From: a virus
IMG/VR virus record: IMGVR_UViG_3300028025_002138
Span: 1 to 20,574 of that record
Length of the DNA: 20,574 bases
Reading direction: 5' to 3' (one strand)
Below the pieces are notes generated by a model. That model was not told the DNA's origin and did no database searches. It saw only the letters and a program-made list of their open reading frames with translations. Below, piece after piece: positions 2-12,514 of this stretch (position 1 is its first letter; each line of letters begins with the position of its first letter). Made by a program: the position numbers and the translations under genes.

Positions 2-3000
2 GTAGAGCCCGCGCCCGTAGTGGCGAAAGCTGAACCCAAAGCAGAAGAGCCCAAGTACGGCGCGTCTTCAAAGGACTTGCTTGCCCAGAAGTTTGAGGCT
101 GACCTTGCGCTTGTCCATGAGAAGCTGGGTAGAAAGGGCAAGCTGACCGAGCAAGAGAACGCTGCGAAATCGTATTTTGGTAAGGTAGTGCCTGAACTTG
201 CTATTCGCGCCATAGCAAACGATGTGGTACGCCAAAAATCAACGTACCGAAACGCCAAAATGAAGGTGTTTGAAAAGTCTGCTGAAGGGCCAGAACGTAC
301 TTTTCACGTACCGGAAGAAGCTGCTTTTTTCAAAGGGCAAGGTGGTGCTAAGACCAAACTGGCTGAAAGCTGGGTACGCGAGAACTTGTCTCCTACAAGC
401 GTTAAGCATTTGGACGACCACATCAAACTGTACGCGAAAGAAGAAACTGGTGGCGCTTCATCCCTCAAAAAGATGAACAAACAGCAAGAAATTAAAGCTG
501 CTTCCGAAGCACAGTTTAAGGACGAGAACCGCGCCGAAGGTAAGACGGGCGAAGGTACGGATGTCAATGAGAACCGCGCCAAGAAAGACGCGATGATGGA
601 TATCCGAATTGACCTTGGTACTGTGCAAGGCAAGCGGGCTAAAAAGAACCAACGGGAAGCTGCTAAGAAATTGATGAAAACTCCTATGGGTTCGGAGTTT
701 TCCGAGATGGATGAGATTGCAGACACGGACGAAGTGTTGTTTGCCTCGCTCGAAGTTGCCAACATGCACGACCTACCGCATCCCGTTGTTGATGCTGCCT
801 TGCGTCGGGGCGATTTGGTTAGCGCGCTACAACTTCTTGATGAGTCTGAATCTTCAGACTTCGTGTCACGTGTGGCAAGTACGCTCGCTAAATACATTGG
901 TGATACGAAGATTGAGTACGGGGCCAAAGAGTCTAAGTTCGACCCCAAGAAGAACACTATCTACTATCGGGAAAACGCCACCGAGTACGAGATACTGCAC
1001 GAGGCTACCCATGCCGCCGTGTCGCACGTTATAGCCAACCCTTCCCACTCAGTTACCAAGCAACTGCAAAAGCTGTTTGATGAGGTCAAAGGCAGCATCG
1101 ACGGTGCGTATGGCGCAGAAAGCCTACAAGAATTCGTTGCCGAGGTATGGAGCAATAAGGACTTCCGTCAGCAACTGAAAGAGATGCCATCGGTAACTCC
1201 TAAGCTGTCCATGTGGGACAAGATTCTGAATGTGTTCCGTAAGTTCTTTGGGCTTGAGCCTAAAGCTGCACCTAAAGCCGAATCCATGCTGGATAGAACG
1301 GATGCCCTGATTGACCAAATCGTTGGCCCCGCGCCTGAGTTCCGTGATGGTGATACGCTGTTTGCACAGGCAATCAATGACCCCACCATTGCCCGCAGGA
1401 TTCTTCAGCAAGTAGGAACCACGGGTACGGTGTTCACCCCTGAGCGCGTGACTGACTGGCTTGCTAATGCGGAAACCGTGGGAGTTGCTGGGCGCAAAGT
1501 GATGTCCAAGTTCCTTAACTTGTCTGCGTTCGGGCAAGTCTCCAGCAAGCTGCTGGGCAGGGAAGCCATAGAGTTTTCTGACAAAGTGAACGAGATGTCA
1601 GGGTACTACGAGACCTTGATGAACAAGCTGCACCCGTTGCATAAACGGCTGGAGGCGTACGCTGACCCAAGCAATAGCCGGTACAAGGAATGGGCTACGC
1701 TGGTGCATGAGTCCTCACGGTTCGATGTTGACCCGAGGAAGAACGTCAGCGAGTACGCTACCAATCCCGAGAAGCTGACCAAGTACCGCGAGTTCAAAGC
1801 GGGGTATGACCGCCTACAGCCCAATGAAAAGGCGCTGTACGACGACTTGTTCAAAGCATACGATGCAATGTACTTGGAATTGAAGGACTCCATCCGCAAC
1901 AACTTGATGGATGCGTTCCCGACTGACCAAGCCAAGGCACTGTCTGCGTACAACAAAATCATGGATGAGATTACGTCCAAGAAGATAGGGCACTATGTGC
2001 CGTTGTACCGTGATGGTGCGTTCTTCTTGACGTATCTGCCCAAGGGTTCCGCAGAACATACGACTGAGATGTTCAATACTCAGGTAGAGCGCGAGGCCAA
2101 GCGATTCCAGCTAGAGAAGGACGATGCGGTTGAGCCGGGCAGCTTTGAAGAGAAGGCGTTGTTTGACACGCTGAAAGCCCGCAACATTCCTGCTGGCACT
2201 ATGGCGGCGAACATCATCAAGATAATGAAGGACAACGGTGTAGACGATGTGGGTGTGGACAAGTTCATCCAGCTTATCGTTAGCGCGATGCCCGAGACCA
2301 GCCTGATGAAGTCTTTTCAGACACGTAAAGGTACGCCCGGTTACATCAACGACCCGGCTCTGGCTTTCTCCAATGTGTCCAGTTCTACTGCTAGGCAGTT
2401 GTCACGTATGCGTTACAGCGAGACCCTGCAAGGGCTTGTCGATAAGATGAGCGAGAAGGGTAGGCAGATGCGGGGTGAAGATAGCACTATCGCTGCCGAG
2501 TACGTCAGGGAATTTGAAGCCCGTCGTGAGTACGCGATGAGCCCGAATGTCGCCACATGGGCACGATACGCCAGCACTGGTTCTTTCTACTTCAACTTGG
2601 CGTTCAATGCGTCCTCTGCGTTCGTCAATACGTTGCAGACCCCGATGATTGTGCTGCCTCATTTGGCTGGTGTCCACGGCTGGAACAACTCCCGCAAAGC
2701 CTTGCAGAAAGCCTTGAATCTGTACACAAGCAGCGGGCTCAAGCGCAAGGTCATTGACATCAATGGGAAAGAGTCTGAAGAGCGGGCCATGCTCTCCATT
2801 GAGAACCTTATACGCGCAGGTAAAAACCCCGAGTACAAAGCCCTGATTGAGCGGCTGTCGGCGCTTGGTTTCCTGCAAAACTCTACCGCCCGCGATGCAC
2901 TAGAAGCATCAGAACGCGCTTCGGCTGACAGTGGTGGCAAGAGGCCGTTGGGGGAAAAGGTTGCTGCCGCTTCGGGCTTTTTAATGCACCACACCGAGCG

Positions 3001-4135
3001 GATGAACCGTGAAATCACTGCGGTTGCTGCGTTTGATTTGGAGATAGAGCGGTTGAAAGGTAAGGGGATTACTGGGGACGCAGCCCAGAAGCAGGCAATT
3101 GAAAAAGCCGTACGTGTTACGGAATTAACGCATGGTGCTGGCAGTGCGGTATCCGGCCCTAGCATTGGTCATAGCAACTTCGGTAAAGTTCTTACCGTGT
3201 TCAAGCGGTTCGGGTTCACCATGTACTACATGTTGTTTGACAACATACGCCGGTCTTTCCCTATAAGCAAGGACATGAGCCCCACCCAAGTTGAAGAGAT
3301 GCAAGCAGCGCGTAGGCAGTTGGCGGGCATATACGGCATGGCAGGGTTGTTTGCTGGTGTTAAGGGCTTGCCCTTGTTTTGGGTTGTGCAGATGGCGTAT
3401 GACGCTTTCCAAGATGATGACGAGGACAACTTCGACACCATGATGCGTAAGTACCTCCATGAGATGGTGTACAAAGGCCCAGTGAACTACCTCACCAATC
3501 TCAGCATTGCTGACCGTGTGGGTTGGACGGATTTGGTTTACCGTGAGAGCAAGGGCGGCAGCAGTGATGCAAGTGCATTGACCAGCATGCTGACTAACAT
3601 AATTGGTGCGCCGTATGCTGTGGTGGACAGTATTTACCGTGGTTCGCAGTTGATAGGTGAAGGACACTTTGAGCGCGGTATGGAGGCCATGCTGCCTGCG
3701 GTACTCCGCAACTTGTTGAAGGGTGGGCGCTATGCAATTGAGGGCGCTAACACGCTGCGCGGTGACCCTGTTATGGGGGACATCAACGGCTACAACGCAG
3801 CCATGCAAGTCTTGGGCTTTGCCCCTGCCGACTTGTTGACTCGGATGGAGATGAAACAGTACGCCAAGAACCTTGATGAAGCGACTGTAGGGAAGAGCAA
3901 GAAGTTGCTCAAGCAGTACTACATTGCGGACAAGATGGGTGACACTGACCGCGCCGATGAGATTCGGGAAAAGCTGTTTGCCCTGAGCGACAAGCACAAC
4001 TTGGGCATTACCGATGCAACCATCAACAAGTCCATGAGGGCAAGGGAACAATTATCGGAAGAGATGTACCACGGCACTACGGTCTCCAAGAAAATCCGCG
4101 ATGAGGTTGAGCAAAGCATTGCGGAGATGGAGTAA
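2..4135 (+). CDS. Giant virion (DNA-ejection/polyvalent type) protein with HEXXH peptidase motif, 5' partial
   Basis: The frame is open to the left edge: codons before the GTG at 20 read V-E-P-A-P-V and run into a Pro/Ala/Lys/Glu linker, so that GTG is internal and the gene begins outside the window. The visible part is about 1,377 residues. An HEATH motif (998-1012) followed some 40 residues later by an EFVAE helix looks like an HExxH zinc-metallopeptidase site with a downstream Glu ligand. The C-terminal two thirds is mostly helical, with a hydrophobic FNLAFNASSAFVNTLQTP segment near 2590-2660, an NREITAVAAFDLE segment near 3005-3045, and a Gly-rich hydrophobic stretch near 3320-3400. These resemble the large PLxRFG/polyvalent proteins I recall at the end of late operons in podovirus-like phages, thought to be ejected with the DNA. 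That family call is from memory. It is the only + strand gene and ends convergent to the replication cluster. Confidence 0.75.
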   Translation, partial: VEPAPVVAKAEPKAEEPKYGASSKDLLAQKFEADLALVHEKLGRKGKLTEQENAAKSYFGKVVPELAIRAIANDVVRQKSTYRNAKMKVFEKSAEGPERTFHVPEEAAFFKGQGGAKTKLAESWVRENLSPTSVKHLDDHIKLYAKEETGGASSLKKMNKQQEIKAASEAQFKDENRAEGKTGEGTDVNENRAKKDAMMDIRIDLGTVQGKRAKKNQREAAKKLMKTPMGSEFSEMDEIADTDEVLFASLEVANMHDLPHPVVDAALRRGDLVSALQLLDESESSDFVSRVASTLAKYIGDTKIEYGAKESKFDPKKNTIYYRENATEYEILHEATHAAVSHVIANPSHSVTKQLQKLFDEVKGSIDGAYGAESLQEFVAEVWSNKDFRQQLKEMPSVTPKLSMWDKILNVFRKFFGLEPKAAPKAESMLDRTDALIDQIVGPAPEFRDGDTLFAQAINDPTIARRILQQVGTTGTVFTPERVTDWLANAETVGVAGRKVMSKFLNLSAFGQVSSKLLGREAIEFSDKVNEMSGYYETLMNKLHPLHKRLEAYADPSNSRYKEWATLVHESSRFDVDPRKNVSEYATNPEKLTKYREFKAGYDRLQPNEKALYDDLFKAYDAMYLELKDSIRNNLMDAFPTDQAKALSAYNKIMDEITSKKIGHYVPLYRDGAFFLTYLPKGSAEHTTEMFNTQVEREAKRFQLEKDDAVEPGSFEEKALFDTLKARNIPAGTMAANIIKIMKDNGVDDVGVDKFIQLIVSAMPETSLMKSFQTRKGTPGYINDPALAFSNVSSSTARQLSRMRYSETLQGLVDKMSEKGRQMRGEDSTIAAEYVREFEARREYAMSPNVATWARYASTGSFYFNLAFNASSAFVNTLQTPMIVLPHLAGVHGWNNSRKALQKALNLYTSSGLKRKVIDINGKESEERAMLSIENLIRAGKNPEYKALIERLSALGFLQNSTARDALEASERASADSGGKRPLGEKVAAASGFLMHHTERMNREITAVAAFDLEIERLKGKGITGDAAQKQAIEKAVRVTELTHGAGSAVSGPSIGHSNFGKVLTVFKRFGFTMYYMLFDNIRRSFPISKDMSPTQVEEMQAARRQLAGIYGMAGLFAGVKGLPLFWVVQMAYDAFQDDDEDNFDTMMRKYLHEMVYKGPVNYLTNLSIADRVGWTDLVYRESKGGSSDASALTSMLTNIIGAPYAVVDSIYRGSQLIGEGHFERGMEAMLPAVLRNLLKGGRYAIEGANTLRGDPVMGDINGYNAAMQVLGFAPADLLTRMEMKQYAKNLDEATVGKSKKLLKQYYIADKMGDTDRADEIREKLFALSDKHNLGITDATINKSMRAREQLSEEMYHGTTVSKKIRDEVEQSIAEME

Positions 4136-9396: not shown

Positions 9397-10947
9397 CTAA
9401 TCGGATAAAATTTCTTTGTAGAGGTCAATTATTTTGTTATGAAAATCGACTTTGTTATGCAGCATGGAATACATGTTGCGCTCTGCCCCACTGCCCTGTA
9501 GATGCACCACGGTAGTCGGATTCTTCTGCCCTGCCCTGTGGACACGGGCGTTGCACTGGAGGTAGGTCTCCACTGACATCACGGGGCTCCAGTACACGAT
9601 GGTGTTCGCGGCATGTAGGGTCACGCCATGCGATGCGGCCTGTGGTTGGATGACCAGCACTTGCGGAGCATCAGTCGTTTGGAACCGGTCAAAGATGTCT
9701 GTGCGTTTACCCACGGGCACATCACCATGAATCACCGCTGTTGAGTATCCATGCTTGCGTAGGTCTTCGGATACCAACTCAATGCCATGCCGATAGGGCA
9801 CGAATACTAGCACCTTGTGGCTGGATTCCTCAATGACTTCCCGCAGGACTGCAAGCCTATTGCTGGCATCAAACTGCACGGTCTCACCTGAGTCGGAATA
9901 GACTGCCCCTGCGGACAACTGCAATAGCTTGTTCAGGCTGGCTGCGGCGTTGACTGTGGTTATCTCTTCACCAGCAGCTTGCACGATTAAACGTCGGCGG
10001 AGCAATTGGTAGTACTTCTCTTGCTGTGCAGTAAGTGGTACGTTGCGCGTTACGTACGTCATCTCTGGAAGGTCTAAACATTCCTCCTTCGTAAACCTAA
10101 TGGCAGGTTGTAAGGCACGGTGAACAACGATTTGCGCTTCGGGTTTCGGAACCCATTTGAACTGCGTCACCTTGTTCATCACAGCATCTTTGAACGCCCC
10201 TGCGTTTCTTGGTACGCCATCAGGGTTGACCAGCTTAGCGATGCCGTATGCGTCTGTGGGTGATTGGGATGCGGGTGTACCTGTGAGCATCCATAGCCAT
10301 GTCTGTGGGGCCAGTATTTTGTGCAGCACCTTCCAGCGTTTCGTGGAGGGATTTTTGTATGCGTTGGCCTCGTCAATCACTATCAAGTCAAACCCACCCT
10401 CGCGGATAGCATCTGCCACAATCTCCACACCGTCATAGTTGATGGCAACGTACTCCGCGTCCCCGTTGATGATGTCTTCACGCTTTGATGCTTTACCGTA
10501 TGCCACATCTACCTTGCGGTGCATAGCAAACTTGAACAAGTCATTGCGCCAAGCCGAGTCCATGATGGATAGGGGGCAGATGATGAGTACCCGCTTAATG
10601 AACCCAAGGGACATCAGGTAGTCAGATGCCCAAATCACACTGGCGGTTTTGCCTGTGCCTTGCTCGTTGAAACAGAACGCCCGTCGATGCAGGGTTAGGA
10701 ACGACGATGTAATTTTTTGATGGTCAAACGGTTTGTATAAACCGGGCCACTTGTACGTAGCGTTGATTGGTGATGGTACGTTAATGCGTAAGTTCTTTAG
10801 TACTGTTGCCTCTTCTAGTCCCCAATGCACCAGCACTTCTGAGAACCCATCCCCCACGGTGATTACTTTGCTTTTGGGTATGACCGTTGTGATGCGGTCA
10901 GGGTTGCGCACCTTCAATAAGATGGCTCTGTTATCAATGATTTCCAC
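9397..10947 (-). CDS. SNF2-type superfamily 2 DNA helicase/ATPase
   Basis: Motifs in the 516-aa form: FDHQ (74-77), Walker A NEQGTGKT (94-101, K100), motif II IDEAN (DEAN 192-195) followed by AYKNP, motif III LTGTP (221-225), and motif VI ARVHRAGQ (about 467-474) with both arginines. These are SNF2-type SF2 features. The usual His of DEAH/DEGH is Asn. Start choice: an in-frame ATG at 11007 would add 20 residues but has no Shine-Dalgarno sequence, whereas GTG at 10947 has AGGAG exactly five bases upstream (10957-10953) and the protein then begins VEIIDNRAILLK. Likely role: ATP-driven translocation on duplex DNA during replication, recombination or fork remodelling. It is preceded by a 360-bp non-coding stretch and its stop codon abuts the next promoter. 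Confidence 0.88.
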   Translation of the reverse strand: MEIIDNRAILLKVRNPDRITTVIPKSKVITVGDGFSEVLVHWGLEEATVLKNLRINVPSPINATYKWPGLYKPFDHQKITSSFLTLHRRAFCFNEQGTGKTASVIWASDYLMSLGFIKRVLIICPLSIMDSAWRNDLFKFAMHRKVDVAYGKASKREDIINGDAEYVAINYDGVEIVADAIREGGFDLIVIDEANAYKNPSTKRWKVLHKILAPQTWLWMLTGTPASQSPTDAYGIAKLVNPDGVPRNAGAFKDAVMNKVTQFKWVPKPEAQIVVHRALQPAIRFTKEECLDLPEMTYVTRNVPLTAQQEKYYQLLRRRLIVQAAGEEITTVNAAASLNKLLQLSAGAVYSDSGETVQFDASNRLAVLREVIEESSHKVLVFVPYRHGIELVSEDLRKHGYSTAVIHGDVPVGKRTDIFDRFQTTDAPQVLVIQPQAASHGVTLHAANTIVYWSPVMSVETYLQCNARVHRAGQKNPTTVVHLQGSGAERNMYSMLHNKVDFHNKIIDLYKEILSD

Positions 10948-11307
10948 ATGGACTCCTATAGGTAAGCACTCCAAACATGGTGTTCGGAGGATAAGTTGTT
11001 GGCGCATGGCTGACCCTTGAAATCAGGCAGCAACTAAGGCTGCGGCGCACACACCAACACAACTGGGGACTGTACAGACGGTCTAGGGCTTCTTCTCTCC
11101 CCGTCTACGGCGTAGTACCCTCACGGTCTAGCCCTCAGCCGCAATCCCCATGCGTGTTAGTCCTCGTCTTTCCGAGGTGTCCGTTAACTCGCGGTTGGAA
11201 CCTTACCGTGTTAACTGATGCAGTTATCTCATGCAGGGGATAGCACCCCTCGTCTCACTCACACTTGCACCTAACTTCGTGAGACTGTCTAAAAAACCAA
11301 AACCAAA
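10948..11307 (-). other. 360-bp non-coding region dense in inverted repeats (possible structured RNA leader or origin)
   Basis: No credible gene fits here; the longest minus-strand starts run only a few codons. Short inverted repeats visible on the + strand: GCAGC/GCTGC (11027-11031, 11039-11043); AGGGCT/AGCCCT (11085-11090, 11130-11135) enclosing CTAC/GTAG (11105-11115); CCTCG/CGAGG (11162-11177); GTTAAC/GTTAAC enclosing CGGT/ACCG (11183-11215); TAACT/AGTTA (11212-11226); AGGGG/CCCCT (11235-11250); GTCTCAC/GTGAGAC (11252-11285). ACGGTCTAG also occurs twice (11078-11086, 11123-11131). This is the longest gap in a genome that otherwise overlaps its genes. It could be a structured 5' leader of the helicase mRNA, a small RNA or a replication origin. 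None can be shown from sequence alone. Confidence 0.55.
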
Positions 11308-11568
11308 TTACTTCATTGACTTGTCAGCATTCCTTGGGAATGACCGATTCTTTGATGCGGGCTCAAGCCGCACACCGTTCTTGTTTGAACCACCTTTAGA
11401 CAGGGCTTTGACATGGGCAACATCCTTACCCGTACGGTCAACGCCTTTCTTGTCTAAGGCTCGTCTAGCACGTTGCCGCTCCATGCGGGCCTCGTGTGCG
11501 CCATCTCGTGTCTTCTCTAACTCGTACTCCCGCTTAACATTGCGGTCTTCCTTGTTCTTGTACGCCAT
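11308..11568 (-). CDS. HNH-like small basic protein, possibly degenerate
   Basis: An 86-aa very basic protein. Two adjacent ATGs exist (11571 and 11568). AAGGAG at 11580-11575 is three bases from the first and six from the second, so the second is preferred. The N-terminal half is a charged helix (KREYELEKTRDGAHEARMER). The C-terminal half, GKDVAHVKALSKGGSNKNG then VRLEPASKNRSF, follows the order of small phage HNH domains: His, then Gly-Gly-x-Asn, then Asn-Arg. Where such domains usually have D-H, this one has A-H (A51/H52), so nuclease activity is doubtful. It follows the Cas4-like gene with an ATGA-type overlap and ends at the structured gap. Confidence 0.65.
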   Translation of the reverse strand: MAYKNKEDRNVKREYELEKTRDGAHEARMERQRARRALDKKGVDRTGKDVAHVKALSKGGSNKNGVRLEPASKNRSFPRNADKSMK

Positions 11569-12251
11569 CATCCACTCCTTCCATTATGGGGGCAAATCAG
11601 CACAGGGCAATACGCCTTGCATGTAAAGTTTTTCTTCGGGTTAAATACTTCGCTCTCGTAAGCCGCATCCCGTTGTACCAATATCTTGTCCAGTTCTGTG
11701 AAGATGTGCATCCCAGTGGGAGCATCATATTCCGCTTTGACCAAATCCTCAGCCACCACGAACAGCAAGGCAGCTTTGACATGCACGACAGTCGGGAAGT
11801 GCAGGAACACACACGCCGCCATCAATGCCAACTGCTTGGTGTCTGCATACCTACTGGACTTGCCCGTCTTGTAGTCAATGATACGCGCCATTTTCCCATC
11901 GGGGCTAATGATTACCAAATCGGCAATGCCCCTGTACCAAACATTGGGGTCGTTGAATGCGCAGGGGAGCAACCGCCCATCCACCCGTTGCAATCCCATC
12001 TCAAGTTCACAGTACTTTTGGCCGGGGTACGTGTTCAGCTTATCCAGTAACGGGTTTAGGTATGAGTACTTCTCAGGGAGAGGAGTGCCATCCCGTATGT
12101 AGTGTTCAGCAGCGGCATGCACATCTGTGCCGTACATCATGGCGGTACTCGCGGGTTCTGAAATGTCCTTGGCTACCCGCATGTGGTAGTACTTCTTGGG
12201 ACATTGGTCGAACAGCGTTATGCCCGAGTAACTCCATGATGGTGATTTCAT
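11568..12251 (-). CDS. Cas4/RecB-like PD-(D/E)XK nuclease with four cysteines
   Basis: A 227-aa protein. The longest frame begins at 12326, but the ATG at 12251 overlaps the TGA of the upstream winged-helix gene (ATGA) and the protein then opens MKSPSWSYSGITLFDQCPKK, the usual start of this family. Motifs: H45 in YGTDVHAAAEHYI, D111 in YRGIADLVII, D126-Y-K128 in RIIDYKTGKS, and Q140 in the following helix. C17 plus C211, C215 and C220 (CKAYCPVLIC) are placed like the iron-sulfur cysteines of Cas4/AddB, though the spacing is not exact. Such enzymes degrade or trim DNA ends. Here, beside polymerase and helicase genes and without any CRISPR, a role in replication-linked recombination is more likely than spacer capture. 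Confidence 0.85.
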   Translation of the reverse strand: MKSPSWSYSGITLFDQCPKKYYHMRVAKDISEPASTAMMYGTDVHAAAEHYIRDGTPLPEKYSYLNPLLDKLNTYPGQKYCELEMGLQRVDGRLLPCAFNDPNVWYRGIADLVIISPDGKMARIIDYKTGKSSRYADTKQLALMAACVFLHFPTVVHVKAALLFVVAEDLVKAEYDAPTGMHIFTELDKILVQRDAAYESEVFNPKKNFTCKAYCPVLICPHNGRSG

Positions 12252-12514
12252 TTTGCTCGTACTCGCTTCGTTTTGTCTTTCTTTAGTGGGGACGGGCAAT
12301 GCGGAGGAACATACGCCACACGCCACTTGGCAGTTAAATACTTACCCTCAACCCAACCCACAATGTATGCGTCAGGCATTTTGTTCAACACTCTGTAGAT
12401 GTGTCGTTCATCCGTTTCCAACCGCATGCTTATCTCTTTTGCTGTCAGCCCCTCTATGTTTGCTTTTAGTAAGTTGCGAACAAGCGGGGCTTTATGCTCA
12501 TACGGTTTTTTCAT
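12248..12514 (-). CDS. Winged-helix DNA-binding protein
   Basis: An 88-aa protein, ATG at 12514 with AAGGAAG upstream. Residues about 8-70 form a winged-helix: LVRNLLKANIEGLTAKEISM, LETDERHIYRVLNKMPDAYI, then wing strands VGWVEGKYLTAKWRVAYV. A Lys/Arg-rich tail follows. It overlaps the 61-aa gene by about 17 bases upstream and the Cas4-like nuclease by ATGA downstream. The fold fits a transcription or replication-site regulator. No target site is visible. It may simply help the nuclease or helicase find DNA (inference). Confidence 0.75.
   Translation of the reverse strand: MKKPYEHKAPLVRNLLKANIEGLTAKEISMRLETDERHIYRVLNKMPDAYIVGWVEGKYLTAKWRVAYVPPHCPSPLKKDKTKRVRAK

What the first reader, a model, noticed from the sequence alone, without database searches (positions are those of the whole stretch)
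10948..11307. 360-bp hairpin-rich non-coding region in an otherwise gene-packed genome
Genes around it overlap by a few bases, yet here 360 bp carry no gene but at least seven short inverted repeats, one nested pair, and a repeated ACGGTCTAG. It sits between the HNH-like and helicase genes in the transcribed strand. A new structured RNA, a long regulated leader for the helicase, or the phage origin are all plausible.
Basis: partly seen in the sequence, partly recalled or inferred. Interest (0 to 1): 0.6.

Follow-up and report, generated by a model that had tools for sequence, protein, structure and literature searches.

The report
Mobile modular RNAs in phages
A 360-base gap between two phage genes holds two conserved folded RNAs that match nothing in the reference RNA library; one of them is a mobile scaffold in which unrelated aquatic phages carry swappable folded RNA parts, which looks like a new kind of mix-and-match RNA element whose job is still unknown.

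Summary
The interval (window 10948-11307, read on the minus strand, the strand of its operon) is non-coding and holds two separate structured RNAs.

RNA1 (11285-11162) is an H-type pseudoknot plus two hairpins. Its pseudoknot helix is 99.5% paired in 35 distinct relatives, with compensatory changes in 5 of 6 pairs and many G-U pairs, so it acts as RNA on the transcribed strand. A scan for the RNA alone found 119 contigs; 109 place it between a small basic gene (p87) and the SNF2 helicase.

RNA2 (11160-10995) is an insert. Near-identical phages lack it or carry it with other contents. It has a rigid scaffold with two slots. I found 130 distinct copies, about 40 recurring cargo families and 96 cargo pairs. 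The window's copy is 96% identical over 170 nt to one beside the terminase gene of an unrelated phage. It was found in no bacterial genome, cultured phage or plasmid searched, and Rfam knows neither RNA.

"Origin" is unsupported, and "helicase leader" does not explain RNA2. Function is unproven: trans-acting stable RNA is my lead, a cis leader the main rival. The hairpin density noticed first is not above chance; comparative evidence carries the case.

The parts
11162..11285 (-). RNA1: conserved pseudoknotted RNA (P1, P2, pseudoknot, P3, P5)
   Evidence: Covariation in 35 distinct relatives; model R1 match at 11210-11288, 66.6 bits; 109 of 119 motif-found contigs keep it between p87 and the helicase.
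11252..11285 (-). RNA1 P1: GTCTCAC (11285-11279) pairs with GTGAGAC (11258-11252)
   Evidence: All 6 counted pairs have compensatory changes; 73% of cells paired, with some rows misaligned by one base.
11217..11271 (-). RNA1 pseudoknot: GGTGCA (11271-11266) pairs with TGCATC (11222-11217)
   Evidence: 99.5% of cells paired in 35 sequences; 5 of 6 pairs change on both sides; other forms GGTGTG/CGCACC, GGTATG/CATACC, GGTACG/CGTACC, GGTAAG/CTTACC.
11181..11215 (-). RNA1 P3: GTTAAC with GTTAAC, enclosing a smaller hairpin
   Evidence: Relatives show GTCAGT/ACTGAC, GCTAAA/TTTAGC, GTTATC/GATAAC (partner chosen partly by fit, so supportive only).
11162..11177 (-). RNA1 P5 hairpin CCTCG-GAAAGA-CGAGG
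   Evidence: Stem varies under fixed loops GGAAAGAC or CGYAA; the same hairpin type also stands directly before RNA2 in unrelated contigs.
10995..11160 (-). RNA2: inserted, mobile, two-slot modular RNA
   Evidence: Absent in L002, L003, L004, L006; present with different cargo in L005; 130 non-redundant copies; 96% identical over 170 nt to a copy in unrelated phage L325.
11142..11155 (-). RNA2 scaffold 5' arm ACGCATGGGGATTG
   Evidence: GGNNATTG pairs with CAGTNNCC; GGAG/CTCC, GGGT/ACCC, GGCG/CGCC and GACC/GGTC versions seen.
11073..11141 (-). RNA2 cargo X (contains both ACGGTCTAG repeats)
   Evidence: Same module in 25 other contigs, 22 in the standard scaffold and 3 in altered stems; inner helix covaries GACGG/CCGTC, GGTGG/CCACC, GATGG/CCATC.
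11054..11072 (-). RNA2 scaffold middle arm CAGTCCCCAGTTGTGTTGG
   Evidence: Near-invariant across cargo types; its GTGTTGG can pair with either the 5' or the 3' arm.
11003..11053 (-). RNA2 cargo Y, two hairpins inside an acceptor-like stem
   Evidence: Same Y with the same X in L325; other units carry other Y modules.
10995..11002 (-). RNA2 scaffold 3' arm CCAACAAC
   Evidence: Conserved in most units, complementary to GTTGG.
10969..10989 (-). Hairpin CTCCGAAC-ACCAT-GTTTGGAG just before the helicase Shine-Dalgarno
   Evidence: A hairpin at this spot in most relatives, also those without RNA1, with different stems.
9397..10947 (-). SNF2-family helicase gene, GTG start
   Evidence: PF00176 E=2e-21, PF00271 E=7e-17, phrog_62 E=6e-107.
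11308..11571 (-). p87, small basic protein, anchor gene of RNA1
   Evidence: No Pfam hit; phrog_4590, unknown function; kept next to RNA1.

Best explanation
The interval encodes two structured non-coding RNAs made as part of the minus-strand replication operon of an uncultured aquatic phage. RNA1 is a family-specific pseudoknot RNA that stays with the exonuclease-p87-helicase locus. RNA2 is a horizontally moving, modular RNA: fixed arms (CCAAC-ACGCAUG-GGNNAUUG, CAGUNNCC-AGYYGUGUUGG, CCAACAAC) hold out two folded cargo domains, X and Y, drawn from large repertoires, some of them tRNA-like. Shown: structure, strand, conservation, insertion, cargo variety, spread between unrelated phages. Inferred: that the RNAs are released as stable RNAs and act in trans on host or phage factors (for example as decoys or ligands), with recombination at the fixed arms exchanging cargo and so specificity.
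For: RNA1: covariation against shuffles and slides; protein-independent scan finds it at the same locus in 109 of 119 contigs; extra genes fit between it and the helicase, and it lies elsewhere in L136 and L207. RNA2: 130 units, 96 X-Y pairs, one X with 11 different Y families, the window's X with 7. Window and L005 are 93-94% identical in the flanking genes but carry different cargo in the same scaffold, while L002-L004 have none. The same unit lies beside the terminase gene of unrelated phage L325 at 96% over 170 nt. Only 4 of 119 RNA2 contigs have this helicase. All 14 units near a tRNA point the same way as it. tRNA T-arms in 12 cargo modules, 0 expected. None in about 85,000 genomes.
Against: No transcript data. 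Genes downstream of RNA2 are co-directional 89 to 13, upstream only 56 to 38, which also fits a 5' leader. Hairpin density and folding energy of the window alone are unremarkable. No promoter or terminator was found in the interval itself. About a third of the helicase relatives lack RNA1.
Confidence: 0.5

Rival explanations
1. Cis-acting leaders: RNA1 and RNA2 are 5' untranslated elements that control translation or transcription of the next gene, with RNA2's GUGUUGG strand switching between two partners.
For: Downstream genes co-directional 89:13; many RNA2 copies end about 20 nt before a Shine-Dalgarno and start codon; the two pairings of GUGUUGG are nearly equal in predicted energy (median difference 0.1 kcal/mol over 105 units).
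Against: The same RNA2 precedes unrelated genes (helicase, DUF6496-like protein, others); in the window it is separated from the Shine-Dalgarno by another hairpin; RNA1 stays put when genes are inserted between it and the helicase and is displaced in L136. Near-equal energies follow partly from similar stem lengths.
Confidence: 0.27
2. DNA-level element: the arms are recombination sites, like integron attC sites, and the hairpins matter as single-stranded DNA; cargo is a passenger.
For: Arms are near-invariant in sequence rather than only in pairing; cargo is shuffled and units are tandem.
Against: A conserved U-G wobble in the GGNNAUUG/CAGUNNCC stem and many G-U pairs in RNA1, which would be A-C mismatches on the other strand; cargo modules themselves covary; no cassette genes; recombinases were not systematically looked for.
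Confidence: 0.12
3. Phage replication origin.
For: GC-skew slope changes close to the helicase start.
Against: The step is as large in 8 relatives without RNA1 as in 27 with it; RNA2 lies beside packaging genes in another phage; G-U pairing.
Confidence: 0.04
4. Intrinsic antiterminator or RNA-processing signal inside the operon.
For: Intercistronic position and strong conserved fold.
Against: Absent in about a third of relatives with the same operon; does not explain RNA2 cargo variety or its spread.
Confidence: 0.07

Closest known systems
Phage tRNA genes and tRNA-like RNAs (Rfam RF00005)
   Same: Some Y modules have D- and T-arm-like parts inside a 7-bp GUUGGUG/CACCAAC stem; L218's Y scores 39 bits as tRNA; RNA2 near tRNAs is co-directional.
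   Different: Most cargo has no tRNA features; ARAGORN calls none of the Y modules checked a tRNA gene; the unit also carries the X domain.
Type III antitoxin RNAs (ToxI) and phage mimics of them
   Same: Small pseudoknotted RNAs, sometimes in tandem, involved in abortive infection and its evasion (PMC3475682, PMC5772629; titles and abstracts only).
   Different: No toxin gene was looked for or seen; units are about 170 nt with two different domains rather than short identical repeats. Resemblance is only in style.
Integron gene cassettes / attC sites
   Same: Exchangeable cargo between conserved inverted arms (general knowledge).
   Different: Arms do not fit the GTTRRRY consensus, cargo is RNA rather than genes, and conserved U-G wobbles point to RNA.
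GOLLD and ROOL large RNAs (PMC12286853)
   Same: Structured non-coding RNAs linked with phages; GOLLD is named for lake environments.
   Different: Several times larger; Rfam scans of window and relatives return no such match.
ssNA-helicase RNA motif (recalled from memory)
   Same: Name suggests a structured nucleic acid near helicase genes.
   Different: No match to any Rfam family in the interval at E up to 10.

Membership tests
Any Rfam 15 family | Score at or above gathering, or E below 1 | tested here: not met
   Window: none at gathering, none at E up to 10 in 10900-11400. Relatives: only tRNA and one int-alpA, none on RNA1 or the RNA2 arms apart from a tRNA-like Y cargo; 11 loci at E up to 5 gave no hit on RNA1.
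tRNA | Cloverleaf with acceptor, D, anticodon and T arms | tested here: not met
   Not met in the window; a minority of Y modules elsewhere are tRNA-like.
Cis-regulatory leader / riboswitch | Fixed position upstream of one gene or one functional class of gene | tested here: inconclusive
   RNA1: same locus but not tied to the helicase start. RNA2: many different downstream genes.
Cis-regulatory leader / riboswitch | Ligand-dependent change of downstream expression | not testable with these tools
   Needs in-line probing and reporter assays.
Integron cassette (attC) | R'/R'' core sites RYYYAAC and GTTRRRY | tested here: not met
   ACCTAAC-like strings occur at unit junctions but the partner is GTTGGTG; by inspection only.
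Replication origin | Skew change that depends on the element | tested here: not met
   Skew step present with and without RNA1.
Stand-alone structured ncRNA | Compensatory base changes on one strand | tested here: met
Stand-alone structured ncRNA | Discrete transcript | not testable with these tools
   No expression data for these uncultured phages.

The most novel reading that the evidence does not exclude
Aquatic phages share a combinatorial library of folded RNA domains that recombine into a common two-slot scaffold and move between unrelated phages. Each combination is a trans-acting RNA aimed at a different host factor, so swapping cargo changes counter-defence or host-takeover specificity without any protein.
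Probability: 0.25. Interest if true: 0.95.

Novelty: categorically new. Interest (0 to 1): 0.82.

Why it matters
Mosaic exchange in phages is known for genes and protein domains. Here the exchanged units appear to be folded RNA domains in a fixed RNA scaffold, found in more than a hundred viral contigs and in no cellular genome, cultured-phage record or plasmid searched. If confirmed, phages would have a modular RNA toolkit that gene-based annotation overlooks, and the recurring cargo families would give concrete handles for finding what each binds. RNA1 is an independent, well-supported new RNA motif with a clear genetic anchor.

Tried and rejected
BLAST against cultured phages: no match or only short chance pieces; plasmids: none. 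Rfam at gathering and at high E-values: nothing. Folding energy and inverted-repeat counts on the window alone: not significant. Frameshifted gene: rejected, because relatives vary in length freely while base pairs covary. Origin: skew step not tied to RNA1. Promoters and terminators: nothing above chance. Nine motif hits (L091, L106, L120, L126, L132, L139, L178, L179, L188) judged chance by inspection. A crude gene-direction test with short ORFs was uninformative and was replaced by one with longer ORFs. Literature searches found no description of either RNA in what they listed; many papers are not held, including a large catalogue of candidate viral structured RNAs that I recall (Fremin et al. 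2023; an id guessed from memory was not found), so prior computational listing cannot be excluded.

Full report
What was checked. The interval 10948-11307 lies in a minus-strand block: PD-(D/E)XK exonuclease (11568-12326), p87 (11308-11571), the gap, then an SNF2 helicase (9397-10947). The helicase ORF can be extended to an ATG at 11007, but more than 60 relatives share the start at the GTG/ATG/TTG position with a Shine-Dalgarno in front, and what lies upstream varies as RNA rather than protein. So the gap is real and 360 nt long. By itself it is not remarkable: inverted repeats and folding energy match shuffled sequence.

RNA1. Eighty IMG/VR relatives were fetched by the helicase protein, so the set was not chosen by the RNA. 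About half or more keep a core of about 120-200 nt in the gap. A MAFFT alignment of 35 distinct copies, scored with a structure I named, gives 86.4% paired cells against 69.0% in shuffles and 30-46% for slid versions. The pseudoknot helix alone is 99.5% paired with double changes in 5 of 6 pairs. G-U and U-G pairs are frequent (15 G-U and 19 U-G at two positions); on the other strand they would be A-C, so the acting strand is the transcribed one. P3 and P5 also vary in a paired way, though there I chose partners partly by fit.

In 109 the hit is flanked by p87 and/or the helicase (55-84% identity) in the same order, nine are chance, and L136 carries a real copy about 2 kb upstream of its exo-p87-helicase block, ending in a terminator-like hairpin. 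L207, another phage, has RNA1 about 770 bp upstream of a p87 homologue in a non-coding stretch of roughly 900 nt that also holds an RNA2. A stricter RNA1 pattern found nothing in about 85,000 genomes.

RNA2. Compared with L002, L003, L004 and L006 the window has about 160 extra bases between P5 and the last hairpin. L005 has an insert at the same place with the same outer arms but different contents, although exonuclease, p87 and helicase DNA are 93-94% identical.

The anatomy is CCAAC-ACG-CAU-GGNNAUUG-[X]-CAGUNNCC-AGY-YGUGUUGG-[Y]-CCAACAAC. The GGNN/NNCC positions covary. X is mostly 20-80 nt and Y 35-130 nt. Clustering by sequence gave 123 cargo families, 42 of them with two or more members; in all but one of the families printed, members use only the X slot or only the Y slot; 96 X-Y pairs occur; the commonest X goes with 11 Y families and the window's X with 7. 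Up to four scaffold copies stand in one contig, many in tandem. The families are defined by a score cut-off, so their number is rough.

Movement. The window's X module was searched without its scaffold: 25 contigs, 22 in the standard scaffold and three in altered stems. In one of those (L321) the outer arms are replaced by fully complementary ones (CCAACAAGUAGAGGGAUUG with CAGUCCCUCUACUUGUUGG), which supports pairing of the 5' and middle arms. L325 has the window's X and Y together at 96% identity over 170 nt, but the genes around it read as terminase, portal and capsid genes, the helicase, p87 and exonuclease gave no match there, and the part of the translated comparison that was printed showed only L321 (gene names by my reading of the translations). 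So the unit travels between unrelated phages. No standard RNA2 was found in about 85,000 genomes.

Strand and context. Fourteen of 126 units lie within 300 nt of a tRNA (2 for random positions) and all 14 share its direction. With ORFs of 200 codons or more, the next gene downstream is co-directional 89:13, the one upstream 56:38. This fits transcription of the strand I name and a place near the start of transcripts, so it fits both stable RNA and leader models. Twelve cargo modules contain tRNA-type T-arms, none expected.

Mechanism. Shown: structure, strand preference, locus linkage of RNA1, mobility and modularity of RNA2. Inferred: release as discrete RNAs and action in trans. I prefer trans action because the same unit precedes unrelated genes, because cargo changes while the scaffold stays, and because RNA1 ignores genes inserted between it and the helicase. 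The alternative pairing of GUGUUGG (median energy difference 0.1 kcal/mol) could be a switch, but the tie follows partly from similar stem lengths.

Limits. Literature coverage is partial. RNA1 alone would be a new member of a known kind, a structured phage RNA; the rating 'categorically new' rests on RNA2.

Noticed in passing
L016 370-392, L029, L031, L074, L258: A further small pseudoknot-like module (GTCTAGGACTCGCAGACGTTAAAGCGAAGAGGG..GTGGAAACCCC) replaces P5 of RNA1 or stands alone in the gap; loop CTCGC/GCGAAGAG covaries with CACGC/GCGAAGTG.
   Followed up: partly
L034 1100-1170: A tRNA gene is inserted inside the same gap between RNA1 and the last hairpin (Rfam 65 bits).
   Followed up: no
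L041-L045, gap before helicase: Some relatives keep only the 3' half of RNA1 (P3 and P5) and lack P1 and the pseudoknot, as if RNA1 were itself modular.
   Followed up: no
RNA2 Y families 1 and 13 (e.g. L249, L283): Two hairpins whose loops (GCTGAT and ATCAGC) are complementary, suggesting a kissing interaction; another Y family shows RGC/GCY loops that vary together.
   Followed up: no
window about 11000: GC skew of the coding strand drops at the helicase start in the window and in relatives with and without RNA1.
   Followed up: partly
window 11308-11571: p87 looks HNH-like by eye (AHVKALSKGGSN..N..SKNRS) but has no Pfam match; it travels with RNA1 and could bind it.
   Followed up: no
L202, L217, L223, L225, L236, L257, L292, L304, L308: Two to four RNA2-type scaffolds with different cargo close together in one contig.
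   Followed up: partly
window 20-4135: Large plus-strand protein with DarB-like and LPD39 similarity, opposite in direction to the rest of the window.
   Followed up: no
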